NCBI GenBank assembly: GCA_900471815.1
Contig: UICE01000005.1
Location: 209,405 to 273,404, forward strand
Length of the DNA stretch: 64,000 nucleotides
Source of the DNA: Hyphomicrobiales bacterium
GTDB lineage: Bacteria; Pseudomonadota; Alphaproteobacteria; Rhizobiales; Rhizobiaceae
Direction of reading: 5' to 3'
Shown here in pieces: positions 12,341 to 29,607 of the stretch (positions within the stretch are counted from its first letter, which is position 1; every line of letters starts with the position of its first letter). Under the pieces are notes generated by a model. The model worked only from the letters and a program-made list of their open reading frames with translations. It was not told where the DNA came from and searched no databases. The position numbers and the translations under genes were made by a program.

Positions 12341-13354
12341 TTAGACGGCCACGCGTTCCTGCTCTTCAAGCCGCATTGCCTGCAGCTGACGTTCCCAGGC
12401 AAGCGCATCACCTACAATTGTATCAAGATCTGCACGCTTTGGCACAAAACCGAAGTCGTTACGGACACGATCATTTGCGGCCACCAATATTGCCGGATCC
12501 CCTGCACGGCGGGGAGCCATTTTTACGGCGAAATCCACCCCGGATACACGCTTAACAGCATCAATAATTTCCAGAACCGAGTAGCCGTATCCATAACCAC
12601 AATTTGCTGTTGTGCTCGCACCGCCTGCCTCAAGATAATTGAGGGCGCACAGGTGAGCTTCCGCCAGATCGCTGACATGGATGTAATCGCGGATACAGGT
12701 TCCATCGGCGGTCGGATAATCCGTGCCATAGACCTCGATATGGGACCGGTCACCGGTGGCGGCCTGGCTGGCGATCTTGATTAGATGGGTTGCGCGAGGA
12801 AATGATTGGCCAGAACGCAGCTTCGGATCAGCGCCAGCCACATTGAAATAACGCAATGCAACAAACCGGAAATCCTTATGAGCGGCAGCGGCATCACGTA
12901 ACATCCATTCGGTCATAAGCTTGGATGTTCCATAGGGAGAAATTGGCTGGTGCGGCATATCCTCGGTGATCGGTGTCCGCTCGGGTTCGCCATAAACGGC
13001 GGCGGTCGACGAAAAAATGAAATGCCGGATGCCTTCCGCGATGGCGGTTTCCATCAATGCTCGCGACTGTACCGTATTGTTACGGTAATAAGATAGCGGG
13101 TCACTAACGGAATCGGGCACGACAATGGAGCCGGCAAAATGCAAGATTGCCGTGATGCTGTGCTTGCGGATCGTGTCAGCAACCAGGGCCTGATCACCGA
13201 CATCGCCCCGAATAAAGGCAACGCCTTCTGGTACCAGCCACTCGAACCCACAACTAAGGTCGTCGAGGACAACAACATCTCTTCCCGCATCTTTCAGGGC
13301 AAGAACCATGTGACTGCCTATATAGCCTGCGCCACCTGTAACAAGAACGGTCAT
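12341..13354 (-). CDS. galE: UDP-glucose 4-epimerase
   Basis: 337 residues. The short-chain dehydrogenase fold is clear: TGGAGYIG NAD-binding loop at residues 6-13, and the YGTSK (YxxxK) catalytic pair near residue 148, with the GalE-type SSTAAVYG strand. It interconverts UDP-glucose and UDP-galactose, supplying galactose for the polysaccharide. It is the last gene of the right-hand operon, 69 bases after the pyruvyltransferase, with AGGAG in front of its ATG. Chromosomes of this group often carry another galE; this copy is probably dedicated to the cluster. Confidence 0.93.
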   Translation of the reverse strand: MTVLVTGGAGYIGSHMVLALKDAGRDVVVLDDLSCGFEWLVPEGVAFIRGDVGDQALVADTIRKHSITAILHFAGSIVVPDSVSDPLSYYRNNTVQSRALMETAIAEGIRHFIFSSTAAVYGEPERTPITEDMPHQPISPYGTSKLMTEWMLRDAAAAHKDFRFVALRYFNVAGADPKLRSGQSFPRATHLIKIASQAATGDRSHIEVYGTDYPTADGTCIRDYIHVSDLAEAHLCALNYLEAGGASTTANCGYGYGYSVLEIIDAVKRVSGVDFAVKMAPRRAGDPAILVAANDRVRNDFGFVPKRADLDTIVGDALAWERQLQAMRLEEQERVAV

Positions 13355-13423
13355 TGATAACTCCTGGGAGGTTATTTCTAGCTTTGTTGAAGATTCTGGC
13401 TTTTGCCAATTAGTGAATTTTGT

Positions 13424-14611
13424 CTAAGCCACACGCCGGACGGAATCCGGTATGTTCTCTTTTGTGTCGACCATCTTGTGGTCGACATGGTTTTCATCAA
13501 GAAATCTGCGCATTTCGCCATATGTTCGATACCAGGCGTCATTGTATTTATCGAACAATGACTGATCCCAATAATCTTCAAGGCGAAACCTATCTCCGCT
13601 GAAGACATCGAAGCGGGGTATCTGGTAGGTTTCAGCGAACTCAACTGTGCGGCTGTCATAGGTAAAATAGATTGATGGCACCCCATTCGCCAAAGCCATA
13701 AGATTGCCGTGCAGCCGGTAACCCAATACGAGATCTTTTGTCTGCACCAGTTTCTCATAGTCGACCACAACGTCCGAATAGAAGAGTCGCTCGCGGTAAA
13801 GCTTCTCGATTGTATCGTCGAGATACCAGTCGGAAGCCCATCGATTGGCCTTCAGCGCCGCGATTGCATCTTCCTTCTGTTCATCAGTTCCCAATACAAG
13901 CTTCTTTTCCTCAATCTCGCCCTGCGCCATAAGCGTTACATCAAAGCGGTCCGCCATCTGCTTAATCAGATCGCGGTGGAAGGTCAGATAACGCTCAATG
14001 TCACGAGCATATGCTGGCGACACTTCACGGCGCACGGTAAGGCCAACATTACGAACTTCCTCAAGCGGAGGAAGGGTGACTTTCAACGTGGGATCATTGC
14101 GCCGAAATGCAGTGGGGCAGCCAACGATCCGAACGTTGTCAATGCCGATATCTTTGAGCACTTGCGCAGAATAGGCCCCTCGCACGCCAATGGATGCCGT
14201 TGAATCCGCCATGATCTTCAGGAGCGTCTTGAGTTCTTCAGGCAGTTGTATCTGTCCTTCGACAGGCGCCTGTGCCCCGATGCCCCAGGCGATTACAGGC
14301 AGTCCAAGACGCTTCAAAACCGCAATCGCATGTGGCCACCCCATATGCTGATGAATATAGTTCGACCCACGCAGAATCACGTAGTCATATTCTTCTTTCA
14401 GCCGGTCGATTTGATCAAAATTTGGCTCACCGAGCGGCAATTCCCGCAGCTTTTCGAAGTTCATCAGCTTGAGCGAGGAGTCAAAGACAAAAGCATCGCC
14501 GATATTATGATAATGGTCGATATATTTTTGAATATCACTGTGCTGGTACCAGCGAACATTATCGTGGTCGTAAACTTCGCCTGATGGGCTCATTACGAGT
14601 ACACGTGCCAT
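13424..14611 (-). CDS. polysaccharide pyruvyltransferase family protein (second copy)
   Basis: 395 residues from the ATG at 14611 (MARVLVMSPSG), which has AGGA upstream and begins 31 bases past the preceding gene; the longer open frame to 14758 runs into that gene. Conserved family blocks are visible: GDAFVFDSSLKL, GVRGAYSAQVLKDIGIDNVRIVGCPTAF, and GYRLHGNLMALANGVPSIYFTYDSR. It is clearly homologous to 6317-7663 along its whole catalytic length. Likely adds a pyruvate ketal to galactose of the exopolysaccharide, as in S. meliloti EPS II. Part of the operon that starts at the GT2 gene at 23363. Confidence 0.82.
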   Translation of the reverse strand: MARVLVMSPSGEVYDHDNVRWYQHSDIQKYIDHYHNIGDAFVFDSSLKLMNFEKLRELPLGEPNFDQIDRLKEEYDYVILRGSNYIHQHMGWPHAIAVLKRLGLPVIAWGIGAQAPVEGQIQLPEELKTLLKIMADSTASIGVRGAYSAQVLKDIGIDNVRIVGCPTAFRRNDPTLKVTLPPLEEVRNVGLTVRREVSPAYARDIERYLTFHRDLIKQMADRFDVTLMAQGEIEEKKLVLGTDEQKEDAIAALKANRWASDWYLDDTIEKLYRERLFYSDVVVDYEKLVQTKDLVLGYRLHGNLMALANGVPSIYFTYDSRTVEFAETYQIPRFDVFSGDRFRLEDYWDQSLFDKYNDAWYRTYGEMRRFLDENHVDHKMVDTKENIPDSVRRVA

Positions 14612-14642
14612 AGGGTATTCCTTTTTGTAACTTTGAAAGCAA

Positions 14643-15971
14643 TCAGCTTGCTTGTGAAAGAACGACTTCGTTCGCTGCCACTGTCTGGGTTGAGCCTTGA
14701 TGAACGGATCGGAGCAATTTTGCGTAGAGGGCAACGTGCTCTTCCGCACAATCGACATAGTTGGTCGGCTGTCGAATTGAGTGATGCAGGTGATCCCAAA
14801 TGAACGGGTCGCTCAAAACCTCTGTGAATCGGTCAGCAAGGTCTTCTGCACTCCGCACGCGGAAATGTAATCCATCTTGCCCATCCCGCACCTTTTCAGC
14901 CATACCGCCAATATTTGAGCAGATAATAGGCCGACGATGATGCAACGCTTCCTGAATAACGATTGGAGAATTCTCCCACCAGATGGAGGGCATCAACACC
15001 CAATCGACGGACTGCATCAGCCGAGGCATTTCGTTATTCTGGTAAGCTCCATGAAACCGCACACGAGATCCTGCATCTGCAATGAGCTTTTCCATGCGCG
15101 TTCGAAATTCTGCGGGCTGCTTTTCAAGATTTCCGCCAAATATCATCAGCCTTGTATCTTCGCCCCAGACTTCCTCTGGCACTCGCGAGACCGCATCGAT
15201 AAGCACGTCAATGCCTTTAAATGGTGTGATCTGGCCGAAATAAGCGAAGCGGTTCCGGCGTGGCTTCGGTCCAGAGAGTTCCCGCGGCGGTGTGACGCTA
15301 TCGATCGCCACACCATTTTCAATGACATGCAGTTTTTTCGGATCCAGGCCCCATTCCGCATATTTGTCAGCGAGAAAACCGCTTGGCGAAACGAAGGCGT
15401 CTGCGAGTTCGAGCATTCCGCGCACAAACTTTTCACGTTTCAAAAATCGAGCTGGCGGAATATCAGGAAAACAGGCGTGACAGTCGATAGGGGACGCTTC
15501 ATGACAAAGTTTGGACGTACCAACTTTGACCATCTGCCCGTCATTGTTGCAAATGGAAAGGTATTCATGAAATGTCATCAATATGATTGCCTTGGGAAGC
15601 GCCTCGCGAATAGCATAAAGAGTTTCCAAACCAAGGCCCAATACATGGTGGAAATGCACCACGTGTGGATTGAGATCGCCGACAAAACGTAAAAGGTCGC
15701 GATGAATTTCGTCTGTGTTGTTGTTTGACAGATAAAAATGATCGTACTCGTCCGAATGAAACAGGATTTCATCGCTGGAGCGCCGCAAGCTCATAAGTGC
15801 AGTCGTTCCGTGACGCGGTATCGGGTGTCCTGCGCGGGCAAGATATACAGATTGAACCCGTGGCAGGGCATTCAGGCCCTTGTGTAAATTGTACGAGGCA
15901 ATTTCACCACCTCCCAGCGAAATGCTCGGATGCGCGTGAGAGATTACCAGAACGCGGAGTTGTTCGGTCAT
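14643..15971 (-). CDS. GT4-family glycosyltransferase (WgeG/ExpE7-like position)
   Basis: 442 residues from the ATG at 15971, which forms an ATGA overlap with the preceding stop; an upstream ATG at 16022 lies inside that gene. GT-B fold: LRVLVISHAHPSISLGGGEIASYN at the N-terminus (glycine-rich acceptor loop), HFHHVLGLG, then the C-terminal FAYFGQITPFKGIDVLIDA and PSIWWENSPIVIQEALHHRRP blocks with the E-x7-E signature. It is a close relative of the GT4 at 19010-20263, with shared residues such as the CHACFPD/CHSCFKE cysteine motif near residue 190, suggesting an internal duplication of the cluster. Retaining sugar transfer in exopolysaccharide assembly is likely; donor unknown. Confidence 0.85.
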   Translation of the reverse strand: MTEQLRVLVISHAHPSISLGGGEIASYNLHKGLNALPRVQSVYLARAGHPIPRHGTTALMSLRRSSDEILFHSDEYDHFYLSNNNTDEIHRDLLRFVGDLNPHVVHFHHVLGLGLETLYAIREALPKAIILMTFHEYLSICNNDGQMVKVGTSKLCHEASPIDCHACFPDIPPARFLKREKFVRGMLELADAFVSPSGFLADKYAEWGLDPKKLHVIENGVAIDSVTPPRELSGPKPRRNRFAYFGQITPFKGIDVLIDAVSRVPEEVWGEDTRLMIFGGNLEKQPAEFRTRMEKLIADAGSRVRFHGAYQNNEMPRLMQSVDWVLMPSIWWENSPIVIQEALHHRRPIICSNIGGMAEKVRDGQDGLHFRVRSAEDLADRFTEVLSDPFIWDHLHHSIRQPTNYVDCAEEHVALYAKLLRSVHQGSTQTVAANEVVLSQAS

Positions 15972-18214
15972 GCCGGAGTCTCCGTTTTCAAAGTGTTTTC
16001 TTTCCCGAAACTCTTGGCCCATCGAGCGTCAAAAATCTGTCTATCAATCCGCTCTATCAGCGCGATCGTGGAAGCCTTTTCGGAGACTATGATATCGTCA
16101 GAGCCCAGCATTTGGGCTGATGGCAACCAATAGGATTTGAGACCCGATTGCTTTAACTTGAGCCCGAGGTCCAGGCCTTTCTCATGCGTTCCCATGTAGC
16201 CGCGTGTGAAGCCGTCTACTGAAAACAGCGCCTCTCGGGGCATGATACAACATTCAAATGTCGCCGTCGCCACTTCCGTCGTCGCCATACCGGTCACAGC
16301 ATCAATAGGGTAACCTGCATAACGACTGATCAAGGCGCGATCCGAATGTGCACCGGCTACCCATGTTCCGGCCCAGCGTATGGAATCATCTTCATATGCG
16401 AGGGTGGGGGAGAGGACGCAATTTTTGCGCATCTCATAAGCCGTCAGCAATTTATTGAACCAACCCTTGTTCCGGGGGAGCAATGAGGCGGCAAGAAACA
16501 CAACTGTTTCGCAAGATACTGCTCGCGCGCCAACTTCAAGTGCATCGTAAAGATCCTCTGAGCCACTAGCCGACACCAGCCGGACACTTAGCTTGTAGAA
16601 CTGCGCCAGTCTTCGCACCCGCACGCCGATACGATCTATAACGTCAGTGGCCCCGGCAATTACGATAGGCAAACCCCGTGTTTCGGGATCAAGCGCTAGC
16701 AAGGCTATAAGCGGTCCAACTTCTTCAACTCTCTCATCAATGCCGATGATAAGCGCCGGACCCTCAATATCATCAAATGCCCCAACATCCACGACACCGA
16801 AGATTTCCGGTGCAGGACGGCTCACATTGCGCAAAAGTGGTACAAGCTGTTGGTCGACTACGTGGCGAAGTGCCCATGCATTTGGGTCAATCGCACGGAT
16901 CTGTCTGACCACAGCTTCTCGTGATGTGACCCGGATCGGTGTCAAAGGCAGAAAGGCGCGCCGCTGATCGCTGAGGCAAAGCTCGAGATAAAACGGGGCG
17001 GTGCTGTCTCCTGATAGTTCCGGCGCAAAGGCAACAAATCCGTGAGCATGCCGATTTGGATCAAGACCAGCATTGAAAGGTGCCCGATTGTCGAATTCGG
17101 CGGTGACATCTGGCCTGTCGATACGGGTCCAGTTGCCATCAAGCTGGCACTCGCCGCGATGACGACGCAATTTTACGCTTTCGACATGACCGTCGGGATC
17201 AAGCAACCAGCCAGAAACCAAGAGGCCACTGCCGTCGACACGCAGGACATTATCAATGCCAGCGCGCACCGGAAGCGGCAAACCGGAAACGGTCTCAGTT
17301 CCGTCAAAGCGGTTGGCAGCCGAACGCATTCGAAGCAATATTTCTGTAGAACCTCTAACGCGCGGCAAAATTGCACGCACATGACTTGGCGTTTCCCGCG
17401 AACCGACAATCAGACGGCGATCATAGACTTCGGTGAAACGCCATCCGCGCCGTCCGCGAAAGAGCAGGCGTTCGATATCACTTGCTTCGACAGTTTCATT
17501 GGCAAGCAACAGTCCGGCAAAGCCCGAAGCTTGGTCGTTCAGATCCGGGCGGGCAAACACCGATATCACACATTCTGCCAGAGACGAAGCGCGTCCGCTG
17601 ATGAAAAGCCGCGTCACTGATGGCGTGAGGTCTTGAGCCCAGCCTTGTACAAAGATTTCACCCTCATCACTGCCACCGATAAGCTCGACACATCCATCCG
17701 ACCGCGCGCCCGCCTGTAGCAAGACGGTAATCGCCGCGAGCTTCTTTCGGCCTATGGGGCCGGAGATCAGGGCCTCCACAAGCCCGTCAATGACGGACGG
17801 GAGATTTGCCCCTGCTAGATCTGCGATCATGGCAATCAGATCGCCAACCGATGCGCCTCTATTGGCGAAAGTATAGCGCGTTACCTTTGCCTTATGCTGG
17901 AACATGATGGTTTTGAGCGAAGCCCGACGCAGTATGCCTGTAGGAAGAACTGCTACAAAACCATGGGTTCCTGCTGGCGAGGCATTTTTCAATGGCCAGC
18001 ACACCAAGGTCGCCTTGAGGCTTAGGGCAGGGTCGCCATTGAGGAACACCGCCACGTGCTCCAGGTTGAAATTCCCTATGCCCATGACGAGCACCAGCGT
18101 ATCGTCAACAGGGCAACCAACAACCATTTCGCCTTCCATGACAATGGAATGGTTTCCCGCTGGTTTGGCAGCGTTGGTTATCGGTAATATGTTCCTGTCA
18201 TCGCGCAAGTGCAT
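15968..18214 (-). CDS. GT2-like protein lacking catalytic motifs, with GW modules (WgeF/ExpE6-like position)
   Basis: 748 residues; ATG at 18214 with GGGAG upstream. The C-terminal about 230 residues align by eye with the GT2 domain of the 753-aa neighbour (for example LSPTLAYEDDSIRWAG against VGPKLLFEDGSLQHAG), but the metal-binding NSD triad is replaced by AAS (residues 575-577) and the later EDSD by EKGLD. It therefore probably has no transferase activity. Two 'GW' beta-modules occur at about 186-230 (FVQGWAQDL) and 325-425 (LLVSGWLLDP...HGFVAF). Same architecture as 21102-23363, so a duplicated and decayed copy acting as partner or scaffold is the best reading. Confidence 0.75.
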   Translation of the reverse strand: MHLRDDRNILPITNAAKPAGNHSIVMEGEMVVGCPVDDTLVLVMGIGNFNLEHVAVFLNGDPALSLKATLVCWPLKNASPAGTHGFVAVLPTGILRRASLKTIMFQHKAKVTRYTFANRGASVGDLIAMIADLAGANLPSVIDGLVEALISGPIGRKKLAAITVLLQAGARSDGCVELIGGSDEGEIFVQGWAQDLTPSVTRLFISGRASSLAECVISVFARPDLNDQASGFAGLLLANETVEASDIERLLFRGRRGWRFTEVYDRRLIVGSRETPSHVRAILPRVRGSTEILLRMRSAANRFDGTETVSGLPLPVRAGIDNVLRVDGSGLLVSGWLLDPDGHVESVKLRRHRGECQLDGNWTRIDRPDVTAEFDNRAPFNAGLDPNRHAHGFVAFAPELSGDSTAPFYLELCLSDQRRAFLPLTPIRVTSREAVVRQIRAIDPNAWALRHVVDQQLVPLLRNVSRPAPEIFGVVDVGAFDDIEGPALIIGIDERVEEVGPLIALLALDPETRGLPIVIAGATDVIDRIGVRVRRLAQFYKLSVRLVSASGSEDLYDALEVGARAVSCETVVFLAASLLPRNKGWFNKLLTAYEMRKNCVLSPTLAYEDDSIRWAGTWVAGAHSDRALISRYAGYPIDAVTGMATTEVATATFECCIMPREALFSVDGFTRGYMGTHEKGLDLGLKLKQSGLKSYWLPSAQMLGSDDIIVSEKASTIALIERIDRQIFDARWAKSFGKENTLKTETPA

Positions 18215-18225
18215 TACTCCCGAGT

Positions 18226-18999
18226 TCAGTGGAGTATCGTCAAGGAAACAAGGGCTCCCGCGGCAAAACCGACAAGAACAAAAAGCAGAAGGAACAGCGG
18301 CTTCACATCACCATTGGACCGCTTCTGCAGCGATTCAATACGCTTTTCCAAGCCTCCGACCACACCGTCAAGACGCATCAAATGTACATCGAGCTCGGTC
18401 AGACGATTATTTACGTCGCCCCGCATCGCTTCAATTGAACCGCCAATATCCAGGCCTTCGACAGACGAGCTACCGCTATTGCCATCAAGCACAGGCGCAG
18501 CACGTTGCAGAGACCTCTGGTTAACCTGCAGCTGACGTTGCGCTGCCATCAGCATGTCGAGCTTGTCCAATATCCGCGTCATTGGCGCAGCGATAAGTGC
18601 TTCTGCTGCCTGTTCGGCGGGTTTGGGGACACGCAAAGCCTGTTCGATCCCTGAGGCACTGATAGCAACCACAACCAGTTCGGCCGCCCTTATCGAAGCA
18701 AATTGCGGCAACATGACATTGAAGGCATGCGCGCCATCACCGATGCCGCTTCGCTTCAAATCTGGGCGATCCTGATCAGCTGTTGCTTCGGCGATTGGTT
18801 TCCCATCCAGCAATACCCGGATGGTCACCCGCGCGGTGGGTGCAGATGGATCGAAGGCCCAGCCGTAAAGACGTCCATCGTCGACGGCGTCGACCCGGCC
18901 CTTCATCGGTTCTATCTTCAGTGGTCGCGCATTATCCTGCACGGGTGCAGCAGGAGGCTGTGGTAAAGCCTGCGCTGGGACTTGTGTCGCTATAGACAT
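18226..18999 (-). CDS. GW-module coiled-coil protein with C-terminal membrane anchor (WgeE/ExpE5-like position)
   Basis: 257 residues from the ATG at 18999 (AAAGGAAG five bases upstream; the longer frame starts inside the preceding gene). After a Pro/Ala/Gln-rich N-terminus comes a beta-module (about 34-100) with GRVDAVDDGRLYGWAFDP and a GIGDGAHAF ending, the same module type seen in the two GT-like proteins of this operon. Residues about 140-225 are heptad-like helix (coiled coil), and the last about 22 residues (PLFLLLFVLVGFAAGALVSLTIL) are a single membrane segment, giving a tail-anchored topology with the module in the cytoplasm. It may hold the glycosyltransferases at the membrane. Function otherwise unknown. 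Confidence 0.75.
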   Translation of the reverse strand: MSIATQVPAQALPQPPAAPVQDNARPLKIEPMKGRVDAVDDGRLYGWAFDPSAPTARVTIRVLLDGKPIAEATADQDRPDLKRSGIGDGAHAFNVMLPQFASIRAAELVVVAISASGIEQALRVPKPAEQAAEALIAAPMTRILDKLDMLMAAQRQLQVNQRSLQRAAPVLDGNSGSSSVEGLDIGGSIEAMRGDVNNRLTELDVHLMRLDGVVGGLEKRIESLQKRSNGDVKPLFLLLFVLVGFAAGALVSLTILH

Positions 19000-19009
19000 G
19001 ATCTTCCTT

Positions 19010-21105: not shown

Positions 21106-23363
21106 GCGGCGCTCCTTTCCGACTTGTTACTAACAAAAGGTGTGACCGTATCCTCGTCAGTCTCGTCGAGATAACTCGTCATCAATTCTGAAATGTCGCG
21201 GTTCCAGCGCTGCGTATGCAGCCATGAATTGTACTGGCTGGCCAAGCCCCGCATATAATCAGAACTCCGGCGTATTGACCGGCGCTCGAAGTGGTAAAGT
21301 GCGACATTCGGCTCGTAGGCAATCTGGAATCCTATCTGGCGGATTTTAAGGCAAAGGTCGCTGTCCTCGTAATCGCCGATCACATAGTCTTCCGTAAAAC
21401 CTCCAACGAGGTCGTAAATATCCTTTCGCGTAACGAGGCACGCGCCTGTTACACCTGGCACAAAGCGGGCGACCCGAGCTGGCGCATAGTCCCCCGGCAT
21501 TCCTTTGTAAAAATGGTGATTGAGCCATACTCCGCGCTGATCCCGGGCGAAATAAAGACCTGCATGTTGCAAAGAACCGTCTTCAAACAGCAATTTGGGT
21601 CCGACAGCGCCAAGTTTTTTCTGTTTGAATAGCGGATTGATAAGTTCATCCAGCCACCCCGCCTTGCAGGGAACGACATCCGAATTCAACATCACCAGTA
21701 TCGTGCCATTGGCGAGGCTGGCGCCGGCGTTGCATGCCCGCGCATAACCGCCATTGCGGTTCATCGTTGCAAGCTTCATGGGCAGATCGTGAAGAATGTG
21801 CAGTCCACCCAGCATGTGCTCGGTATCATCCTGAATTTCAGGGGAATCGAGCACGAAAATGATTTCGGCGTTCTCGACGAGCCAAGGATCTGTTGCCATA
21901 GCGGAAAGTTGGAAACGCAGAAAATCGAGATTCCGGTACAAAGGAATAACAAGGGAAACCAACGGTGATTCCGGCATAATACCGTAATCCTTCACGTCGG
22001 CGATCTTGACCATTTTTCCTATCTTTTGCTCGACCTCCCGCAGGGCTGGCGCCAGAATTCTTTCAAAAACCTGCGCCTTGGCATGCTGTGGCGGGACAGC
22101 GCGTAATATACAGTTGCGCTGAGCACCAGCCTCAAAGGGCTGCATCTGTGGCACAAGTGCAGAGGTTGCACCCGAAATCAGCCGCATTTGGAACCGCGGC
22201 TGCAACAGCGGCCCAAGATTGTTGACCTGCGGAAGCCAGGCAGCAAAACCTGTCACGTCAGACCGTGATCCGTCCTCACCTTTTCCAGTTTTGCCTGGAA
22301 AACTGTAGAAGTTTGGCTTCAGTGGAAGGGCTGTTCCATCTTCGGTTACGTATTCGATACCGGCGAGCATTCCGGACGGATCGTTCGTCCAGCCCCCAAC
22401 CAATAAGCCGCCATCCAGTGCCAGCGCCAGATCAATTTCGCCGGAAGGCTGAGTAGCAGATTTACCGATTTGACGGGCAGGGAGCGGAGCCCTTATCTGC
22501 ATGTCGATTGCGGTCGCGATGCCGGCGCCAGGCACCTTTGCAAGATGGCGTACCAGAAAGGCGCGCAAACTTGCATCCCCCTGTTTTTTTCCCCACCACT
22601 TCTGGAAATCCGAGGCACTGGCATTGTCGGAGAGCTTGCGCACGGCAACGCCATTCTTGCCTGAAATAACCAGTCGAAACGATTGGGGAAGGGCGCGGGC
22701 GGATTCCACCAGCAGGTGGCATTGTTGCAGGCCCTTTTTGACCGCAGGGCCAATAACCAGCTTCACCGGCAGTGAAATGACCGAATTGCCGCTGATACCA
22801 TATATGGCGGTAACAGCTCCAAGGTCCGGGTTGAGACCGGTCTCCAGCAAATGGAGGCCATCAATTGGCTGTCCACAACTGCGCACTTCCCGCGGCTCGG
22901 GTGTAAGTGCCACTGTGACCTCGCGAGCGACGCCGGCGAAAATTGAGTTCTGCGAAAGGCGAAAGGCACTTCGCCACGTGCCGAGCAGGTTGTTGAGGAG
23001 TTTGACCTGTCCGCCCGAGCCGATATTGCTCAAAGCACGCTCTATATCAAAGGCACCCAGCTCGGAAGCTGGATAGAGCATTACTTCCTGGTCTGAGGTC
23101 GAATTGCCATTGGAAAGCCTAAGCGAAACAGGATCGGCCTTCGTCCGCATTGCCCAGAACATACGCTGACCGCCCGTTTCGAGCGGCATGCTGAGGCTGA
23201 CGAGGGGCACCAAAGGATTTGATGCTTCGATAGTGCATTTTGTCAGCGCTTTGGAGGAAGCTGGAATATCCCATATTACAACAGCCACGTCGGCGCAAAG
23301 GCGCGAGATCGAAAGGTCCTGTGGGTAATCTTCAATTTCCGTTGAATGGTCTAGGTGCAACAA
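21102..23363 (-). CDS. GT2-family glycosyltransferase with N-terminal beta modules (WgeB/ExpE2-like position)
   Basis: 753 residues, TTG start at 23363 with AAAGGG upstream; no in-frame ATG near. The N-terminal about 300 residues are beta-rich and unassigned. A GW-type module (LLVGGWTNDPSG) lies at about 310-400. The GT2 catalytic domain spans about 467-695: VSLVIPLYRNLDF, the RNGGYARACNAG nucleotide loop, the metal-binding NSD at 560-562, and GDYEDSDLCLKI (EDSD at 666-669). Inverting transfer of a sugar at the start of the repeat is likely. The gene begins only about 30 bases past the strong terminator of the RTX gene, so it is read either by leakage or by its own weak promoter. Confidence 0.85.
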   Translation of the reverse strand: MLHLDHSTEIEDYPQDLSISRLCADVAVVIWDIPASSKALTKCTIEASNPLVPLVSLSMPLETGGQRMFWAMRTKADPVSLRLSNGNSTSDQEVMLYPASELGAFDIERALSNIGSGGQVKLLNNLLGTWRSAFRLSQNSIFAGVAREVTVALTPEPREVRSCGQPIDGLHLLETGLNPDLGAVTAIYGISGNSVISLPVKLVIGPAVKKGLQQCHLLVESARALPQSFRLVISGKNGVAVRKLSDNASASDFQKWWGKKQGDASLRAFLVRHLAKVPGAGIATAIDMQIRAPLPARQIGKSATQPSGEIDLALALDGGLLVGGWTNDPSGMLAGIEYVTEDGTALPLKPNFYSFPGKTGKGEDGSRSDVTGFAAWLPQVNNLGPLLQPRFQMRLISGATSALVPQMQPFEAGAQRNCILRAVPPQHAKAQVFERILAPALREVEQKIGKMVKIADVKDYGIMPESPLVSLVIPLYRNLDFLRFQLSAMATDPWLVENAEIIFVLDSPEIQDDTEHMLGGLHILHDLPMKLATMNRNGGYARACNAGASLANGTILVMLNSDVVPCKAGWLDELINPLFKQKKLGAVGPKLLFEDGSLQHAGLYFARDQRGVWLNHHFYKGMPGDYAPARVARFVPGVTGACLVTRKDIYDLVGGFTEDYVIGDYEDSDLCLKIRQIGFQIAYEPNVALYHFERRSIRRSSDYMRGLASQYNSWLHTQRWNRDISELMTSYLDETDEDTVTPFVSNKSERSAA

Positions 23364-23428: not shown

Positions 23429-23439
23429 ATAAATCGATA

Positions 23440-24099
23440 TTAATGAACGACGAAGAAATCGCCTGGGTTTGCGAGTACATCGTCAGCGTTCACACCAACC
23501 AGTGTGACAGAGTCGCCATTGCCGAGATCGACAACTACGTCACCACCAACCTGGGTAACATGGGAAGCCACATCGTCAGCCGAGTGGATATCCGTTCCGT
23601 TAATGCCACTCGAAATCTGGAGATGATCCTGACCTGGAGTGAAATCGAGCACGACGTCGTTGCCGCCGCCGCCATTGAAGACAAACGTATCGCTGCCTGC
23701 ACCACCGATGAGTGTGTCATCGCCAGCACCGCCAGAAAGGATATCGTTTCCAGCACCGCCAGAAAGGATGTCATCACCTTGCCCGCCGAACAGAATGTCA
23801 TTGCCTGCACCGCCGAGAAGAACATCGTCTCCACGACCGCCAAACAGAACATCGCTGCCGTCATTGCCGGTCAAGACGTCGTTGCCATTATCACCGAACA
23901 GGATGTCACTACCAGCGCCACCGAAAATGGAGTCATTTCCGTTGCCGCCGAACAGGAGATCATCCCCATCATCGCCGAATATTGTGTCACTTCCGTTCCC
24001 ACCAAAAACAACGTCATCACCGCCACGGGCGTGGATGAAGTCATCAAAACGGGAGCCAAACAAAACGTCGTCGTAGGCGCCGCCTTCTAAAGTGGCCAT
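23440..24099 (-). CDS. secreted RTX calcium-binding protein (WgeA/ExpE1-like), T1SS substrate
   Basis: 219 residues. From residue 6 to about 140 the protein is an almost pure tandem of about 15 glycine- and aspartate-rich nonapeptides (consensus GGxGxDxLx), the first three degenerate; these form a calcium-bound beta-roll. There is no N-terminal signal. The last about 30 residues (NGDSVTLVGV..., ending DFFVVH) look like a C-terminal type I secretion signal. The cognate ABC and HlyD genes lie directly upstream. In S. meliloti WgeA (ExpE1) has the same role beside the EPS II genes and is exported with WgdA/WgdB. Monocistronic expression is indicated by its own terminator. Confidence 0.88.
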   Translation of the reverse strand: MATLEGGAYDDVLFGSRFDDFIHARGGDDVVFGGNGSDTIFGDDGDDLLFGGNGNDSIFGGAGSDILFGDNGNDVLTGNDGSDVLFGGRGDDVLLGGAGNDILFGGQGDDILSGGAGNDILSGGAGDDTLIGGAGSDTFVFNGGGGNDVVLDFTPGQDHLQISSGINGTDIHSADDVASHVTQVGGDVVVDLGNGDSVTLVGVNADDVLANPGDFFVVH

Positions 24100-24393
24100 C
24101 TGCTTCTCCTTTGTTGTCCTGCATTGAGTTATGCATTGCCGGAAAAATACCCCGGCGATCGAGTGCTTTGACGATTGTGCGCTGCACCAAATCGAAATGC
24201 AACATATGTTATGAATATAAATGTGGCAATCTATAGTAACAATTTATTACATGAATGTATTACGACATATTTATATTAGACTTATAATTGCGCTTTAAAC
24301 TCAATATACTTTAGTTATGCATCCTTATTATGCGTAAATTATTTTTAATTTTGAAGTACCCTCAAAAACATCAGCTGTACCAGCGCTTTCCGG
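24100..24393. other. AT-rich promoter region of the RTX gene
   Basis: 294 very AT-rich bases between the HlyD gene stop and the RTX start, with no plausible gene. The RTX promoter must lie here. A TTTTGAAGTA half of the locus operator occurs at 24349-24358, but its mirror half is degenerate. Confidence 0.55.
24347..24360. promoter_or_regulatory. half-operator of the MarR palindrome upstream of the RTX gene
   Basis: AATTTTGAAGTACC matches the right arm of the palindrome at 27731-27751 (TTTTGAAGTA identical) but the left arm is not conserved. It lies about 250 bases upstream of the RTX start. S. meliloti ExpG binds the expE1 promoter, so a weak site here is plausible; alone it could be chance. 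Confidence 0.4.
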
Positions 24394-25812
24394 CTAATCT
24401 TCCCTGAAGGCACGGTTGAAACTATCGGTGATTGGGCCAGCGATGTAATCAATCGCTCGACGTGCCTTATGAACGATCAGGATTTCGGCGGGCATGCCTG
24501 GATAAAGCTTGATGGACGGATTGGCTGTCAGCGACTGGGGAGAAATTTCCGCCCGTGCCACAAAGTAGGCTGTTTCGCTTTTTTCATCGATAAGCTGGTC
24601 AGCGGCAACATAGGTGACCTTGCCGTCGAGCGGCGAAAGGGATCGTTGATTAAACGCCGTCAATTTGACCTGAACTGCAGAATTCACAGCAACGCCATCA
24701 ATATCGCGTGGACTGATCTTCATTTCGACCACCATCGGCTCGTTTTCCGGAACAATATCAAGAATTGCTTCGCCGGCTGCAACAACACCGCCCGGTGTAC
24801 GCAGACGAATATTGTCGACGATACCGGCCTGTGGCGAACGTATCTCGACCCGGCGCATGACATCTTTGGCAGCGACAATTCGCTCTTCGGTGTCAGCAAG
24901 ATCAGTCTGGCTGGTGGTAATTTCACCTGCAATCTCTGATTGCACATCACTTTCAATGCCGGTCAGCGAAAACTCGGCACCTGCTTTGGCCTGTTCCGCT
25001 TTGGCCTTATCGCCGGCATATTCACCACGTTGGCCGGCAAGTTCGCTTAGCCGGGTATCGATCTCCGTAAGTTTAGATTTTTGGGCAAAACCCTTTTTGA
25101 CCAGGCTGGCGATTGCATCGCGCTGTTCGGTGATAAGGGCAATCTGTCGATCTGTGGCTACGATCTGTGCCTCTGATGCCTTTGCCTGCTCGGTATATTG
25201 TTCAATGGTTTTTTGCTGAACATCGATGCGACTTGTCTTTTGGGAAGAGCGCTTTTGGAAAAATATCTGCTCGGCTTTCATGGCATTTTGTGCCGTAACA
25301 TCATCAGCCGCACCAAAATCTTTTGGAAACTCGATTTCAGTAGCGCCCGCCTGCTCCGCCCGCAGGCGAGCAAGCTTTGCGATCAATCCGACGCGGCGGC
25401 TTTGCAGAGATTGCAACTCCGAGCGGGCCTTTGTGTTGTCCAACCTTACCAGCGGCTGCCCAACTTTGACGACGTCGCCTTCCTGGACCAACAAGCGATC
25501 AAGGATACCACCTTCAAAATGACTGATGGTTTTACGCTTTGAATCAACGATTACCGTTCCAAGCGCAACAGCAGCGCTGCCAAGCTCAGCCGAGTAAGCC
25601 CAGCCAAAAAAACCACCAAATGCGATGGCTATCGTTGCAACACCGGCAATGATCAACCTGCGTAAAGGGCTCTTTGCATCTTCCTGCTCGAGGTCGGTGA
25701 CCCATTCAGGACGAACCGTGCCAAATTTCGTAAGCAGATTATCGCCGGTCGATGCGGCGCGCGGGGCAAGCAATTGGGAAACCCGTTTGGGCAGATTGAT
25801 TTTGTCGGTCAT
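24394..25812 (-). CDS. HlyD-family type I secretion periplasmic adaptor (WgdB/ExpD2-like)
   Basis: 472 residues. A cytoplasmic N-terminus is followed by one membrane segment (about residues 53-75), a lipoyl-like half (VVKVGQPLVRLDNTKARSELQ), a long helical hairpin (about 150-310, rich in A/E/K/Q), the second lipoyl half (EIRSPQAGIVDNIRLRTPGGVVAAGEAILDIVP) and a beta-barrel C-terminus. This is the membrane-fusion protein that links the ABC exporter to an outer-membrane TolC-type channel, which is not in the window. ATGA overlap with the ABC gene shows tight coupling. The substrate is very likely the adjacent RTX protein. Confidence 0.9.
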   Translation of the reverse strand: MTDKINLPKRVSQLLAPRAASTGDNLLTKFGTVRPEWVTDLEQEDAKSPLRRLIIAGVATIAIAFGGFFGWAYSAELGSAAVALGTVIVDSKRKTISHFEGGILDRLLVQEGDVVKVGQPLVRLDNTKARSELQSLQSRRVGLIAKLARLRAEQAGATEIEFPKDFGAADDVTAQNAMKAEQIFFQKRSSQKTSRIDVQQKTIEQYTEQAKASEAQIVATDRQIALITEQRDAIASLVKKGFAQKSKLTEIDTRLSELAGQRGEYAGDKAKAEQAKAGAEFSLTGIESDVQSEIAGEITTSQTDLADTEERIVAAKDVMRRVEIRSPQAGIVDNIRLRTPGGVVAAGEAILDIVPENEPMVVEMKISPRDIDGVAVNSAVQVKLTAFNQRSLSPLDGKVTYVAADQLIDEKSETAYFVARAEISPQSLTANPSIKLYPGMPAEILIVHKARRAIDYIAGPITDSFNRAFRED

Positions 25813-27575
25813 GATGCAGTCGCTCTCTTAGGACCGGTCGGTGTTATCGAAGCAACAACATCCGTGCGCGGCCCGAACTGGGTAATACGGCCGTCCTCAA
25901 GGACGAGAAGCTTGTCCGCCACCTGCATAATTGTGGGTCTATGAGCTATCATGATCACGATCGCACCATCATCGCGCGCCTGTTCTATGGCCCGCATCAA
26001 TGCTCTCTCGCCCACGGCATCAAGATTGGCATTGGGTTCATCCAACACGATAAGGCGGGGCCGGTTGTAAAGGCAACGAGCGAGGCCAATCCGCTGGCGT
26101 TGACCACCCGACAGCGTTAAACGCCCGTCGCCCACAGGCGTATCATAACCCAGCGGCAGCCTACCGATCATCTCGTGAACATCAGCAAGCCTCGCGGCCT
26201 CTAGAACACGGTGGGGGTCACTGTCGCCCATGCGTGCGATGTTGTCCTTGATCGTTCCTTCAAGCAGCGCCACAGACTGCGGCAAGTAGCCGGCAATTTC
26301 GCCGAATGAGCCGCGCTCCCACAGATATACGTTGTTGCCATCGAGGAAAACTCCTCCAGACGTGGGCTTCACGATGCCGATCATCAACCGGGCAAGCGTC
26401 GACTTGCCAGCAGCTGAAGGACCGACAATACCGAGGACCTCTCCGGGTGAAAGGGCAAATGAGATTCCCTTGATGATTGGCATTTCGACACCAGGCGCGG
26501 CATAGACCAGCCTGTCTACGATAAGATCACCATGGGGCCTAGGCGTCGGCATTGTTTGCCGCACTGCGAGATTTTGGGCCAGCAAGGATTGAATCCGCTG
26601 CCAGTTTCCAATTGCGTTCACCCATTGCCGCCAAGTCTCAACGACCTGATCAAACGGCATGAGAAGTCGTCCGACAATGATACTCGTGGCAATCATCGCG
26701 CCAGGCGAAATTTCTTGCTCCATGGCCAGCAATGTGCCGGCCCCAAGCGTTACCACCTGGATCATGAACCGTAATGTACGTGTAATGGATGTCATGGCAC
26801 GGCTACGGCTGCCGCCAAGGTCAAGCAGATCCAGAGCATTCATCTGCAGGCCACGCCAGCGACGGGCCAAAGCAGGTAGCATACCCATGGCTTCAATCGC
26901 TTCAGCATGGCGCAATGTTGCACCGATCTTGGAGATTGCCTCGATATTCGCCTGATTCGCGTCTTTCACCAGGTTGCGGGTCATCAAATCCGTCACGACA
27001 CCGCAGCAAATCAGAATGATGACCGCCACAATACCAATAATGCCAAAGACAGGATGCAGCAAAAATAGGACTCCGAGAAAAATAGGAGACCAGGCAGCAT
27101 CAAGCGGAGCACTTACCGCTGACGACGTCAGAAACGAACGCAACTCGGTCAAATCACGTAGGGATTGTGTTGCTTTTGGAAGCCCCTGATCAACCGAGGC
27201 TTGTACTGCTGCGGTTAAAACCGGGAGGTTAAGCCGACGAACCAATGCGCTACCCATTGCCTGAAATGAGAGAGCGCGGATGAACTCCAAAATACCGAAA
27301 ACAATCAATGCGCCAATCGCGAGAATCGTTAGCATTAACAACGTATCCGTGCTGCGGCTATTCAAAACACGGTCATGAACCTGCAGCATATAAAGCGGTA
27401 CTGTCAGCTGCAAAATGTTGATGCAGGCACTGAGCAAAACAGCATAAAGCAGCCCCGCCAAAAATACCCGGCGGGCTTTGAAAATAAGTGTTTGAGGCGT
27501 GGGCACCGTAGGTGTCATCGCTTTTTTTCCAACATTGCTATTGCCATTCTCATTGATTTGACGAGTATCTACCAT
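25809..27575 (-). CDS. type I secretion ABC permease/ATPase, PrtD family (WgdA/ExpD1-like)
   Basis: About 588 residues from the ATG at 27575 (AAGG upstream); a GTG at 27599 and an ATG at 27518 are alternatives. The N-terminal half has about six membrane segments; the C-terminal ATPase shows Walker A (GPSAAGKST), the LSGGQRQRIGLARCL signature and Walker B (LIVLDEPNANLD). There is no C39 peptidase domain, as in PrtD-type exporters of RTX proteins. It is divergent from the MarR regulator gene with the perfect palindrome between them, exactly the wgdA (expD1)-wggR (expG) arrangement of S. meliloti. It should energise export of the RTX protein and may also be needed for EPS production. Confidence 0.9.
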   Translation of the reverse strand: MVDTRQINENGNSNVGKKAMTPTVPTPQTLIFKARRVFLAGLLYAVLLSACINILQLTVPLYMLQVHDRVLNSRSTDTLLMLTILAIGALIVFGILEFIRALSFQAMGSALVRRLNLPVLTAAVQASVDQGLPKATQSLRDLTELRSFLTSSAVSAPLDAAWSPIFLGVLFLLHPVFGIIGIVAVIILICCGVVTDLMTRNLVKDANQANIEAISKIGATLRHAEAIEAMGMLPALARRWRGLQMNALDLLDLGGSRSRAMTSITRTLRFMIQVVTLGAGTLLAMEQEISPGAMIATSIIVGRLLMPFDQVVETWRQWVNAIGNWQRIQSLLAQNLAVRQTMPTPRPHGDLIVDRLVYAAPGVEMPIIKGISFALSPGEVLGIVGPSAAGKSTLARLMIGIVKPTSGGVFLDGNNVYLWERGSFGEIAGYLPQSVALLEGTIKDNIARMGDSDPHRVLEAARLADVHEMIGRLPLGYDTPVGDGRLTLSGGQRQRIGLARCLYNRPRLIVLDEPNANLDAVGERALMRAIEQARDDGAIVIMIAHRPTIMQVADKLLVLEDGRITQFGPRTDVVASITPTGPKRATAS

Positions 27576-27730
27576 ACACTTCTGCCTTGGAAATGACACA
27601 GCCGCGGTTTAGCTCCTACGACCTTGGTCTAAGGCCATAGACTAGTAAAGTAATACTGCGCAGAATGTGACAGAAAAAAGTTCTTACGGTGGGGAAATAT
27701 TCGAAGGAGAACCGAAAACATACTTGTAAC

Positions 27731-27751
27731 TTACTTCAAATTTTGAAGTAA
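27731..27751. promoter_or_regulatory. perfect 21-nt palindrome, probable operator of the MarR/WggR-like regulator
   Basis: Arms TTACTTCAAA and TTTGAAGTAA are exact reverse complements around one T. It lies in the 196-base gap between the divergent T1SS ABC gene (start 27575) and the marR gene (start 27772), ending 20 bases before the latter. Near copies occur at 12252-12272 and, as a half-site, at 24347-24360. Confidence 0.82.
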
Positions 27752-27771
27752 ACTTGATCATGGAGACCGAG

Positions 27772-28344
27772 ATGATACAAAAACTTCTGCACGAAGAAGT
27801 GGAAGTCGAAACATCTATTGACGGCTATGACGCCGCCAATTTCCCCGAAATTACCGCAGAAAAACAGGGACATAGACATCCAGTTCATACAGTTGTTGTA
27901 ACGCATTTTGAACTGGCAAGAATGATTGAGAGGGTCAATCGCAGGTTCGCGAGTCTGCTCAGGACAGAGATGACAAAGCTCGGCGTCGAAGATGTTGGGC
28001 CAGCTCAGGCGATGGTTCTTCTTGCCATTGGCGACGTTGAACTTTCGGTTGGAGAATTGCTGGATCGCGGCCATTATGTCGGCTCCAACATTTCCTATTA
28101 CCTCAAGCAGCTAGCCGATGGTGGATATATCGACAGGGTAGCATCACAGCGCGACAAGCGATCTGCCAGGATTCGTTTGACGGAAAAAGGCGAACAGCTT
28201 TGCGCTAATTTGCGCGACGCTGGCGGTGCTTACAATCGGGTTCTAGCGCGGGATGATGGTGACCTGCGCAATCTTGAAATCGCATTTCAAACATTGCATC
28301 GGCTTGAACTGGTTTGGGGTAATGCTGCACGTTATGGCATTTAA
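27772..28344 (+). CDS. MarR-family transcriptional regulator of the polysaccharide locus (WggR/ExpG-like)
   Basis: 190 residues from the ATG at 27772, which has GGAG six bases upstream; TTG 27754 and ATG 27760 are also in frame. The winged helix-turn-helix is at about residues 75-145: VGPAQAMVLLAIGDVELSVGELLDRGHYVGSNISYYLKQLADGGYIDRVASQRDKRSARIRLTEKG written in the usual MarR order, with the wing DKRSARI. The N-terminal about 40 residues are an acidic extension. S. meliloti WggR (ExpG) is a MarR protein of similar size that activates EPS II genes and sits beside wgdA, as here. Self-regulation is likely through the palindrome at 27731-27751. Confidence 0.85.
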   Translation: MIQKLLHEEVEVETSIDGYDAANFPEITAEKQGHRHPVHTVVVTHFELARMIERVNRRFASLLRTEMTKLGVEDVGPAQAMVLLAIGDVELSVGELLDRGHYVGSNISYYLKQLADGGYIDRVASQRDKRSARIRLTEKGEQLCANLRDAGGAYNRVLARDDGDLRNLEIAFQTLHRLELVWGNAARYGI

Positions 28345-28386
28345 CAATCAAGAAGTATGTCGTAACGCTCGGAAAGGACTGAAATC

Positions 28387-29607
28387 ATGCATGTGGCATT
28401 CGTGCACAGACGTGGCTTTGGTCAATTTTCTGCTCTGGCTGAGCATCTTGCCTCCAATGGGCATGATGTTAGCCTCGTTTGTGAAACTGTAGACCGACGC
28501 CTCCCATCGGTCCGCGTAATCAGACACAGGGCAGAGCCGGGCCCACGATCGGATACTCAGATGGCAAAACATCTGGGTATACCGGACCACCATGTTCGAA
28601 TTGGGCACCGGGTAGCTGAAACATTTGAGGCCATGATACGTCATGACCAGCGACCAGATATTATCGTCGGTCACATAGGCTGGGGCAGCATGATGTTTGT
28701 AAAAGACGTGCTGCCACAGGTACCCGCTATAGGATATTGCGAATTCTTCTACAGGGCCGACGGCGCGGATGTCGGATTTGCACCCGATGACACACCTGAC
28801 GCGGATACACGCAAGCGCTTGCGTCTACGCAATATCGCCCAGCTCATATCACTCGAAGCCCTGGATGGCGGCATTAGCCCGACAGAATGGCAAAAGAGCC
28901 TCTACCCCGCATACACACAAAACCGCATCGCTGTCTGCCACGAAGGCGTGGACACTCAACGCTTTCGTCCAGATCGCAACGCCTCGCTGCGTCTTCCGGA
29001 CGGGCGTGTTTTGCGGGCAGGGGATCCACCAATCATCACATTCGTTGCCCGTGATCTGGAACCTTATCGCGGCTTTCCTCAAGCACTTGAAGCGGCATCC
29101 AAAGTTCTTGCCAAAAATTCCGACGCTCTCTTTATCTTTGTGGGGGGCGATGGGGTAAGCTATGGCAAGCCACCGCCTAGCGGAGGTACTTGGAAAGAGG
29201 TCATGCTGGCGCAACACAACGTCCCTGCTGACCGCGTCTTGTTTACAGGCCCAATCTCACATGATCTGCTTCGCCAGCTTTATCAAATTTCCACAGCCCA
29301 TATCTATCTGACATATCCATTTGTCCTATCCTGGTCTGTCGTGGAAGCCATGGCCTGTGGCGCTCTGATAATTGGCTCTGACACTTCTCCGGTGCAGGAG
29401 ATCATACGATCGGGAAAAAATGGCTTACTTGTTCCATTTTATGATACTGACGCTTTGGCGGATACCATTCTACGGGTTTTGCACAAGCCGGACGATTATA
29501 TACCTTTGCGTATCGCTGCTCGCAGGACAGTCGAACACCGCTTCCAGTTAGCAGATTGTCTGACACGCCAAAAAGCGTTGATTGGGTCAATGGCCAAAGC
29601 AAGTTGA
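28387..29607 (+). CDS. GT4-family glycosyltransferase (WgcA/ExpC-like position)
   Basis: 406 residues. GT-B fold: MHVAFVHRRGFGQFSALAEHLASNGHDV at the N-terminus, a middle ISLEALDGGISPTEWQK block, and the C-terminal ITFVARDLEPYRGFPQALEA with SWSVVEAMACGALIIGSDTSPVQEII (E-x7-type motif as EAMACGAL). It starts 42 bases after the marR stop on the same strand and is probably co-transcribed with it. In S. meliloti expC encodes a glycosyltransferase next to expG, so this may be its counterpart. The stop lies only 5 bases from the stop of convergent virB6. Confidence 0.84.
   Translation: MHVAFVHRRGFGQFSALAEHLASNGHDVSLVCETVDRRLPSVRVIRHRAEPGPRSDTQMAKHLGIPDHHVRIGHRVAETFEAMIRHDQRPDIIVGHIGWGSMMFVKDVLPQVPAIGYCEFFYRADGADVGFAPDDTPDADTRKRLRLRNIAQLISLEALDGGISPTEWQKSLYPAYTQNRIAVCHEGVDTQRFRPDRNASLRLPDGRVLRAGDPPIITFVARDLEPYRGFPQALEAASKVLAKNSDALFIFVGGDGVSYGKPPPSGGTWKEVMLAQHNVPADRVLFTGPISHDLLRQLYQISTAHIYLTYPFVLSWSVVEAMACGALIIGSDTSPVQEIIRSGKNGLLVPFYDTDALADTILRVLHKPDDYIPLRIAARRTVEHRFQLADCLTRQKALIGSMAKAS

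What the first reader, a model, noticed from the sequence alone, without database searches (positions are those of the whole stretch)
12341..29607. A galactoglucan (EPS II)-type exopolysaccharide cluster outside its S. meliloti reference setting
Gene content and order from the regulator leftward (MarR; divergent T1SS ABC; HlyD; RTX; GT2; methyltransferase; GT4; anchored protein; GT-like; GT4; pyruvyltransferase) match wggR-wgdA-wgdB-wgeA-wgeB... of S. meliloti. galE and two pyruvyltransferases fit a pyruvylated galactose polymer. The local version adds a GH16 hydrolase, a GT2-GT4 fusion and an AlgX-type acetyltransferase, so the product is probably a new variant.
Basis: partly seen in the sequence, partly recalled or inferred. 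Interest (0 to 1): 0.8.

Follow-up and report, generated by a model that had tools for sequence, protein, structure and literature searches.

The report
Galactoglucan-type slime sugar gene cluster
This is a variant of the known gene cluster by which the alfalfa symbiont Sinorhizobium meliloti makes its second slime sugar; it is usual equipment of the soil and root genus Phyllobacterium, its conserved heart includes a sugar-transferring enzyme that has lost its catalytic residues, and its decorating genes come as an exchangeable cassette.

Summary
Partly confirmed. wgcA, wggR, wgdAB and wgeA-G of S. meliloti have one-to-one counterparts here in the same order, 48-76% identical. The cluster runs 3727-29607, beyond the given limits. 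Wrong details: the GT2-GT4 fusion is WgaB, which S. meliloti also has (39%); the pyruvyltransferase after wgeG is not the S. meliloti order. Occurrence outside S. meliloti is normal: WgeF is in 20 of 20 genus genomes searched, the core order in 84 of 89 alphaproteobacterial loci. Added here: (1) the palindrome ACTTCAANNNTTGAAGT, shared with S. meliloti, has its only two perfect copies in the 4.6 Mb genome upstream of wgaA and between wggR and wgdA. (2) WgeF, without a Pfam glycosyltransferase match, is a GT-A-fold paralogue of WgeB that lacks both catalytic motifs in 88 of 88 sequences. (3) Of 20 genus genomes 12 carry a P-type wga cassette, 6 an S-type, 2 neither, none both. (4) The core holds no recognised flippase, polymerase or synthase, only a type I secretion system. 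Product inferred: a pyruvylated, probably acetylated Glc/Gal polymer. New variant of a known kind.

The parts
3727..5514 (-). AlgX/SGNH-domain protein with TPR repeats (595 aa), probable O-acetylation factor; part of the P-type wga cassette
   Evidence: Pfam PF16822 ALGX 47 bits plus TPR; 79% to P. zundukense homologue in the same place
5481..6320 (-). GH16 glycoside hydrolase (279 aa); N-terminus reads like a twin-arginine signal (SRRSFLTLAG, my reading)
   Evidence: Pfam PF00722; 75% to P. zundukense, 67-68% to S. americanum
6317..7663 (-). second polysaccharide pyruvyltransferase (pptB, P type)
   Evidence: Pfam PF04230; 25% to S. meliloti PPT, 93% to P. zundukense
7666..10596 (-). wgaB-like GT2-GT4 fusion (976 aa)
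   Evidence: Pfam GT2 + GT4; RBH to S. meliloti WgaB, 39%
10538..12064 (-). wgaA-like DUF6212 protein (508 aa)
   Evidence: Pfam PF19717; RBH to S. meliloti WgaA, 27%
12254..12270 (.). perfect palindrome ACTTCAATATTTGAAGT upstream of wgaA, putative WggR operator
12341..13354 (-). galE, UDP-glucose 4-epimerase
   Evidence: Pfam Epimerase; 86% to annotated galE of P. zundukense
13424..14611 (-). pptA, polysaccharide pyruvyltransferase (ORF extends to 14758; start inferred from homologue length)
   Evidence: Pfam PF04230; next same-strand ORF after wgeG in 51 of 84 loci
14643..15971 (-). wgeG, GT4 (ORF to 16022; start inferred)
   Evidence: RBH 67%
15968..18214 (-). wgeF, GT-A-fold pseudo-glycosyltransferase, paralogue of wgeB
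   Evidence: RBH 48%; motifs absent in 88 of 88; model and fold match
18226..19026 (-). wgeE, C-terminally membrane-anchored protein with a GW-type beta domain (by eye)
   Evidence: RBH 59%; one TM-like segment in 78 of 84, two in 6
19010..20263 (-). wgeD, GT4 (ORF to 20329; start inferred)
   Evidence: RBH 76%
20260..21105 (-). wgeC, SAM methyltransferase
   Evidence: RBH 62%
21102..23363 (-). wgeB, GT2 glycosyltransferase with intact NSD and ED motifs
   Evidence: RBH 59%
23440..24099 (-). wgeA, all-repeat RTX calcium-binding protein, presumed T1SS substrate
   Evidence: Pfam PF00353; RBH 68%
24394..25812 (-). wgdB, HlyD-type adaptor
   Evidence: Pfam; RBH 65%
25809..27599 (-). wgdA, type I secretion ABC transporter (likely start 27518)
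   Evidence: NCBIfam TIGR01842 over cut-off; RBH 76%
27733..27749 (.). perfect palindrome ACTTCAAATTTTGAAGT between wggR and wgdA, putative WggR operator
   Evidence: perfect in 19 of 19 other same-genus genomes
27754..28344 (+). wggR, MarR-type regulator (likely start 27772)
   Evidence: Pfam MarR_2; RBH 64%; whole-genome best hit
28387..29607 (+). wgcA, GT4
   Evidence: RBH 75%

Best explanation
A galactoglucan (EPS II)-type exopolysaccharide cluster of Phyllobacterium, built from a conserved core plus an exchangeable decoration cassette. WggR and its palindromic operator switch both parts together (inferred from the sites). GalE supplies UDP-galactose; WgcA, WgeB, WgeD, WgeG and WgaB transfer glucose and galactose; the two pyruvyltransferases add pyruvate ketals and AlgX-TPR probably O-acetyl groups; GH16 probably trims the chain. 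WgeF is a catalytically dead partner of WgeB that I take to act as scaffold or acceptor-holder. WgdAB with an outer-membrane channel secretes the calcium-binding RTX protein WgeA, without whose secretion (in S. meliloti, reported) no galactoglucan appears outside. Shown here: orthology, order, operator sites, loss of WgeF motifs, no other recognised export gene in the core, cassette distribution. Inferred: sugar linkages, enzyme activities, the roles of WgeF and GH16, WggR binding.
For: Eleven reciprocal best hits in collinear order; order kept in 84 of 89 loci; regulator orthology against the whole genome; operator at wggR/wgdA with at most 2 mismatches in 71 of 85 loci against 0 of 425 shuffles, and the only two perfect copies in the genome lie in this cluster; two PF04230 pyruvyltransferases and galE. 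In S. [quoted passage not shown]
Against: No product chemistry. The wga module is only 22-39% identical to that of S. meliloti. rmlABCD, the reported dTDP-glucose route, is not in the cluster, and wgeH is missing. The wgeA-upstream site in the window is degenerate (3 of 14 mismatches), and the operator at wgaA is well kept in only 5 of 12 P-type and 0 of 6 S-type loci. No LuxI homologue was found in the genome, so the S. meliloti quorum control cannot be identical.
Confidence: 0.83

Rival explanations
1. The cluster makes exactly the S. meliloti galactoglucan; the P-type cassette is only a diverged functional equivalent of wga.
For: Core proteins are well conserved (48-76%) and the cassette has the same kinds of genes, DUF6212, GT2-GT4 fusion and pyruvyltransferase.
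Against: Cassette proteins are 22-39% identical while core proteins are 48-76%; P- and S-type cassettes occur in different strains of one genus and differ in hydrolase and acyl-modifying genes.
Confidence: 0.4
2. The polymer is assembled on a lipid carrier and exported by a Wzx/Wzy or other system encoded elsewhere in the genome; WgdAB only secretes WgeA.
For: The genome has two priming-GT (PF02397) and three outer-membrane export (PF02563) homologues elsewhere.
Against: None of these lies in the window cluster, and no extra gene of that size was found inside the core block of 84 loci (ORF length and hydropathy only); wgd genes are reported as needed for EPS II (PMC1403797), which fits this rival too if only WgeA is needed.
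Confidence: 0.45
3. The core builds a glycan on a protein (the RTX protein WgeA or an S-layer-like surface protein) rather than a free exopolysaccharide.
For: Close linkage of the GTs to an RTX protein and its T1SS; a dead GT-A partner, recalled to resemble GtfA/GtfB adhesin glycosylation; GT-A models whose best solved matches include polypeptide GalNAc-transferases.
Against: Those fold matches reflect the general GT-A fold; the WgeA rows that I viewed (12 of 87) show no conserved acceptor region outside the repeats and the C-terminal part; the S. meliloti product is reported as secreted polymer of high and low mass (PMC1403797).
Confidence: 0.12
4. The cluster is silent or decaying.
For: Some relatives show split frames (L036, L040).
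Against: All cluster genes are open in the window and WgeF is full length in 20 of 20 same-genus genomes; both operators are perfect.
Confidence: 0.04

Closest known systems
S. meliloti galactoglucan (EPS II, exp/wga-wgc-wgg-wgd-wge) cluster
   Same: Regulator, divergent T1SS, RTX protein, WgeB-G order, WgcA, operator palindrome, presence of WgaA, WgaB and two pyruvyltransferases
   Different: wga cassette lies after galE instead of next to wgcA and is only 22-39% identical; pptA follows wgeG; galE present; wgeH and rmlABCD absent from the cluster; GH16 and AlgX-TPR present; no LuxI found in the genome
Phyllobacterium zundukense Tri-48 plasmid cluster (NZ_CP017942.1; its annotation, does not name galactoglucan)
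   Same: Collinear gene for gene from algX to wgcA, 75-94% identity
   Different: No T4SS between wgcA and the adenylate cyclase
Sinorhizobium americanum CFNEI 73 plasmid C cluster (L106)
   Same: P-type cassette: WgaA 70%, WgaB 82 and 67% in two frames, pptB 90%, GH16 69%
   Different: Core closer to S. meliloti (WgeF 64%); cassette sits next to wgcA, with rml genes beyond it

Membership tests
Galactoglucan (EPS II)-type cluster | MarR regulator WggR divergent from wgdAB | tested here: met
   64%; whole-genome best hit
Galactoglucan (EPS II)-type cluster | T1SS WgdAB plus RTX protein WgeA | tested here: met
Galactoglucan (EPS II)-type cluster | WgeB-C-D-E-F-G in order, and WgcA | tested here: met
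Galactoglucan (EPS II)-type cluster | wgaA, wgaB and two pyruvyltransferases | tested here: met
   present but diverged (27, 39, 25, 22%; the last not a reciprocal best hit) and at another position
Galactoglucan (EPS II)-type cluster | WggR operator upstream of wgaA, wggR/wgdA and wgeA | tested here: inconclusive
   perfect at the first two, 3 of 14 mismatches at wgeA; the published operator letters were not seen, the match is to the reported promoters; binding not tested
S. meliloti EPS II cluster in the strict sense | wgaG-J (rmlABCD, dTDP-glucose supply) in the cluster | tested here: not met
   RmlB homologue on another contig
S. meliloti EPS II cluster in the strict sense | wgeH after wgeG | tested here: not met
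   pptA there
S. meliloti EPS II cluster in the strict sense | AHL synthase (Sin) quorum control | tested here: not met
   no PF00765 match in the genome, found in 4 of 4 comparison genomes, the sister strain YR531 among them; ExpR not tested
S. meliloti EPS II cluster in the strict sense | alternating Glc/Gal disaccharide, pyruvylated and acetylated | not testable with these tools
   needs sugar and linkage analysis
Wzx/Wzy, ABC-2 or synthase polysaccharide pathway | flippase/polymerase, ABC-2 exporter or membrane synthase in the cluster | tested here: not met
   Pfam on the window's cluster genes shows none; one unassigned same-strand ORF of 100 aa or more (L054, 170 aa, no TM-like segment) inside the core block of 84 loci

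The most novel reading that the evidence does not exclude
Galactoglucan-type polymers are made by a pathway of their own, outside Wzx/Wzy, ABC and synthase types: soluble glycosyltransferases organised by the dead GT WgeF and the membrane-anchored WgeE build the chain, and a dedicated type I secretion system with its RTX substrate WgeA, as acceptor, carrier or calcium-bound organiser, brings it out.
Probability: 0.13. Interest if true: 0.85.

Novelty: new variant of a known kind. Interest (0 to 1): 0.42.

Why it matters
In the passages that I saw of four reviews (PMC3233446, PMC1403797, PMC8227245, PMC4443731) no mechanism of galactoglucan polymerisation and export is set out beyond assigning wgd and other cluster genes to it. 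The comparative core (one RTX protein, its T1SS, four GTs with WgcA, one conserved dead GT, one anchored protein) reduces that question to a testable set of genes. The P/S cassette exchange gives natural variants of one kind of polymer for relating structure to root colonisation, and the operator gives a precise regulon to test.

Tried and rejected

Led nowhere: literature on marginalan gene clusters (0 papers), on Phyllobacterium and galactoglucan (5 papers, listing only), on wider wge homologues (listings, of which I opened passages of six papers) and on WgeF/ExpE6 by name (107 papers hold a term; of the 15 listed one, PMC12542648, is about these genes, passages seen; it names WgeE, WgeB and others, and the listing counts no WgeF in it). 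The antiSMASH/MIBiG search listed no paper naming galactoglucan among the 12 shown. The first LuxI search had no ringing control, so it was repeated with four comparison genomes. The class-wide search is a lower bound, since at most three candidates per genome were scored.
Full report
What is there. The window is G000:C10:209405-273404 of a 4.6 Mb genome. I infer its genus to be Phyllobacterium: same-genus genomes G007, G013 and G018 have contigs with the lengths of the Phyllobacterium sp. T1293, sp. 628 and P. zundukense Tri-48 records. The finding covers the right part of a gene cluster that runs from 3727 to 29607.

Observation. Reciprocal best hits between the window ORFs and the ORFs of a 40-kb S. 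meliloti R14 pSymB locus (L004) give WggR 64%, WgdA 76%, WgdB 65%, WgeA 68%, WgeB 59%, WgeC 62%, WgeD 76%, WgeE 59%, WgeF 48%, WgeG 67% and WgcA 75% in the same order and orientation. WgdA is split into two ORFs in L004. These hits are reciprocal within the two loci only; for WggR the reverse search covered the whole window genome (79%, next best 50%). The wga part is far less alike: WgaA (DUF6212) 27%, WgaB (GT2-GT4 fusion) 39%, pyruvyltransferases 25 and 22% (the latter not reciprocal). The best L004 hit of galE is rmlB, 25%. wgeH and the other rml genes have no match. The S. meliloti gene names follow the order given in the reviews PMC3233446 (passages) and PMC1403797 (passages); pptA, pptB, P type and S type are my labels.

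The fusion GT is WgaB and is shared. A pyruvyltransferase after wgeG is not the S. meliloti order but is found in 51 of the 84 loci with a complete core. GH16 and AlgX-TPR are real and have no match in L004; the S-type cassette of Phyllobacterium sp. A18/5-2 has instead a weak glycosyl-hydrolase match (20.6 bits, cut-off 21) and a GDSL-like match (29.1 bits, cut-off 32.9).

Distribution. A WgeF alignment (A1, nine sequences) found 146 relatives in the genome collection, of which the 80 best were kept: Phyllobacterium, Brucella (former Ochrobactrum), Falsochrobactrum, Sinorhizobium, Ensifer, Neorhizobium, Rhizobium, Thalassospira, Azorhizobium, Chelatococcus and others. With eight plasmid loci (L004-L011) and the window, 89 loci were annotated; a few taxa are in twice. 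Of these, 84 keep wgdA-wgdB-wgeA-wgeB-wgeD-wgeF-wgeG in order on one strand, fragments of one gene in succession being counted once. The five others are two short contigs (L038, L087), two without a wgdB label (L060, L065) and Paracoccus yeei (L009, rearranged, no recognised WgeB). Within the 84, wgeC went unlabelled in 10, where an extended wgeD ORF overlaps its place (L006 has a methyltransferase annotated there), and wgeE in 3. All 20 genomes searched in the genus, the window's included, have a full-length WgeF. In 289 genomes drawn across the class, 10 match at 1e-30 and 4 of these, the window's included, full length (a lower bound), so the cluster is patchy in the class. Predicted galactoglucan clusters in an Ochrobactrum genome are already in print (PMC4384485, one passage).

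Regulation. The reviews say that WggR binds conserved palindromes upstream of wgaA, wggR/wgdA and wgeA (PMC3233446, PMC1403797); I did not see their letters. In L004 the same three regions share a palindrome, perfect at wggR/wgdA, with 1 mismatch at wgaA and 2 at wgeA. The window has two perfect copies of ACTTCAANNNTTGAAGT, at 12254-12270 upstream of wgaA and 27733-27749 between wggR and wgdA; 0.16 matches with up to 2 mismatches are expected in the window, and 1 of 100 shuffles had two. In the whole genome these two are the only perfect copies, with one further place at 1 mismatch (control pattern read backwards: 1 forward, 1 reverse). Upstream of wgdA the best match has at most 2 mismatches in 71 of 85 loci and in 0 of 425 mononucleotide shuffles; upstream of wgeA in 39 of 87 loci and 1 of 435 shuffles; upstream of wgaA in 9 of 14 loci and 0 of 70 shuffles (in L004 the wgdA row failed because its gene is split). 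All 19 other same-genus genomes have a perfect site at wgdA (one further row, L133, was another ABC gene). Against my reading: the distant loci have no good site (6 to 7 mismatches at wgdA in Chelatococcus L006, Azospirillum L008, Paracoccus L009 and Azorhizobium L088, 4 to 6 at wgeA; Thalassospira L078 4 and 4). In the same-genus stretches plus S. americanum only 5 of 12 wgaA-P and 0 of 6 wgaA-S upstream regions have at most 2 mismatches (2 of 195 shuffles do). The window's wgeA site has 3, and the sister strain YR531 (L012) has 3 at wgaA. MucR is present. No LuxI gene was found, while 4 of 4 comparison genomes, YR531 among them, have one.

WgeF. In 36 sequences scanned against Pfam none has a glycosyltransferase match even at E 10; two have a match to DUF6101 (best E 0.00022), the rest only chance-level ones. 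The window sequence has no NCBIfam match. Profile comparison aligns it with WgeB over 402 columns (probability 99.8, E 7e-29). WgeB keeps the NSD motif in 85 of 85 and the ED motif in 85 of 85 sequences; WgeF has neither in any of 88 (of 89 loci, rows under 70% coverage or 26% identity were left out beforehand). That NSD and ED are the metal-binding and catalytic motifs of GT2 enzymes is established knowledge, recalled. The WgeF model (pLDDT 83.9) matches GT-A enzymes best (GalNAc-T2, E 2e-8), as does WgeB (pLDDT 85.1; B4GALNT1, 3.7e-12); TM-scores by query length are only 0.22-0.28, since the match covers one part of each protein. The review lists six glycosyltransferases for the S. meliloti cluster and WgeF is not among them (PMC3233446). 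WgeB, WgeE and WgeF share a GW..DP beta domain by eye and, for WgeB and WgeF, in the profile alignment.

Export. By hydropathy, WgdA has 3-6 TM-like segments, WgdB one (82 of 83) or two, WgeE one (78 of 84) or two (6), WgcA one marginal (7 of 7) and WgeF one in 42 of 88 and two in 5; WgeA, B, C, D and G have none except in 4 of 87, 8 of 85, 0 of 74, 3 of 87 and 0 of 86 (some ORFs start too early). Only one unassigned ORF of at least 100 aa lies on the strand inside the core of 84 loci (L054, 170 aa, at the place of wgeE). An S. meliloti tolC mutant secretes neither WgeA nor galactoglucan, and the authors explain the latter by the former (PMC2912261, passages). The genome has two priming-GT and three outer-membrane export homologues elsewhere, so a lipid-linked route from another locus is not excluded.

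Cassettes. In 20 same-genus genomes (window included; two stretches of up to 20 kb each for the other 19) 12 carry the P-type cassette after galE, 6 the S-type cassette next to wgcA, 2 neither within the stretches, none both. S. americanum CFNEI 73 has a P-type cassette at the wgcA side of a core closer to S. meliloti, which points to horizontal transfer. GC content is 0.524 for the cassette and 0.525 for the core.

Judgement. The cluster is a galactoglucan-type exopolysaccharide locus and a new variant of that kind. It is not filed as the S. meliloti EPS II cluster in the strict sense, because rml, wgeH and the AHL synthase were tested and not met. Interest is moderate: the identification is expected for the genus, while the dead glycosyltransferase, the compact regulon and the missing exporter make a question about polymer export testable.

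Noticed in passing
29613-38655: VirB-type T4SS genes (virB6, virB4, SLT, virB11, virB10, virB9, virB8) lie between wgcA and an adenylate cyclase. The same T4SS follows wgcA in 10 of 19 other same-genus genomes; in the 6 S-type genomes the S cassette lies there instead.
   Followed up: partly
L142 (G017): Only a virB6 homologue, with the cyclase close beyond it, next to wgcA: perhaps a remnant of the T4SS.
   Followed up: no
912-2949: Imelysin (M75)/cupredoxin protein and FTR1 iron permease, an iron uptake pair next to the cassette.
   Followed up: no
L004:7198-8175: S. meliloti WgeH has no Pfam match; by eye it has a GHSQGG esterase-like motif, so it may be an acyl-modifying enzyme.
   Followed up: no
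L007, L047-L049, L053, L059, L070, L072: A gene weakly similar to RmlA (25-38%; annotated UTP-glucose-1-phosphate uridylyltransferase in L007) sits at or near the end of the wge operon, so the sugar-nucleotide gene differs by lineage: galE, UGPase-like or rml.
   Followed up: partly
G311 (genome of L012, Phyllobacterium sp. YR531): The nearest relative of the window has a LuxI homologue while the window's genome has none found, so quorum sensing varies within the genus.
   Followed up: no
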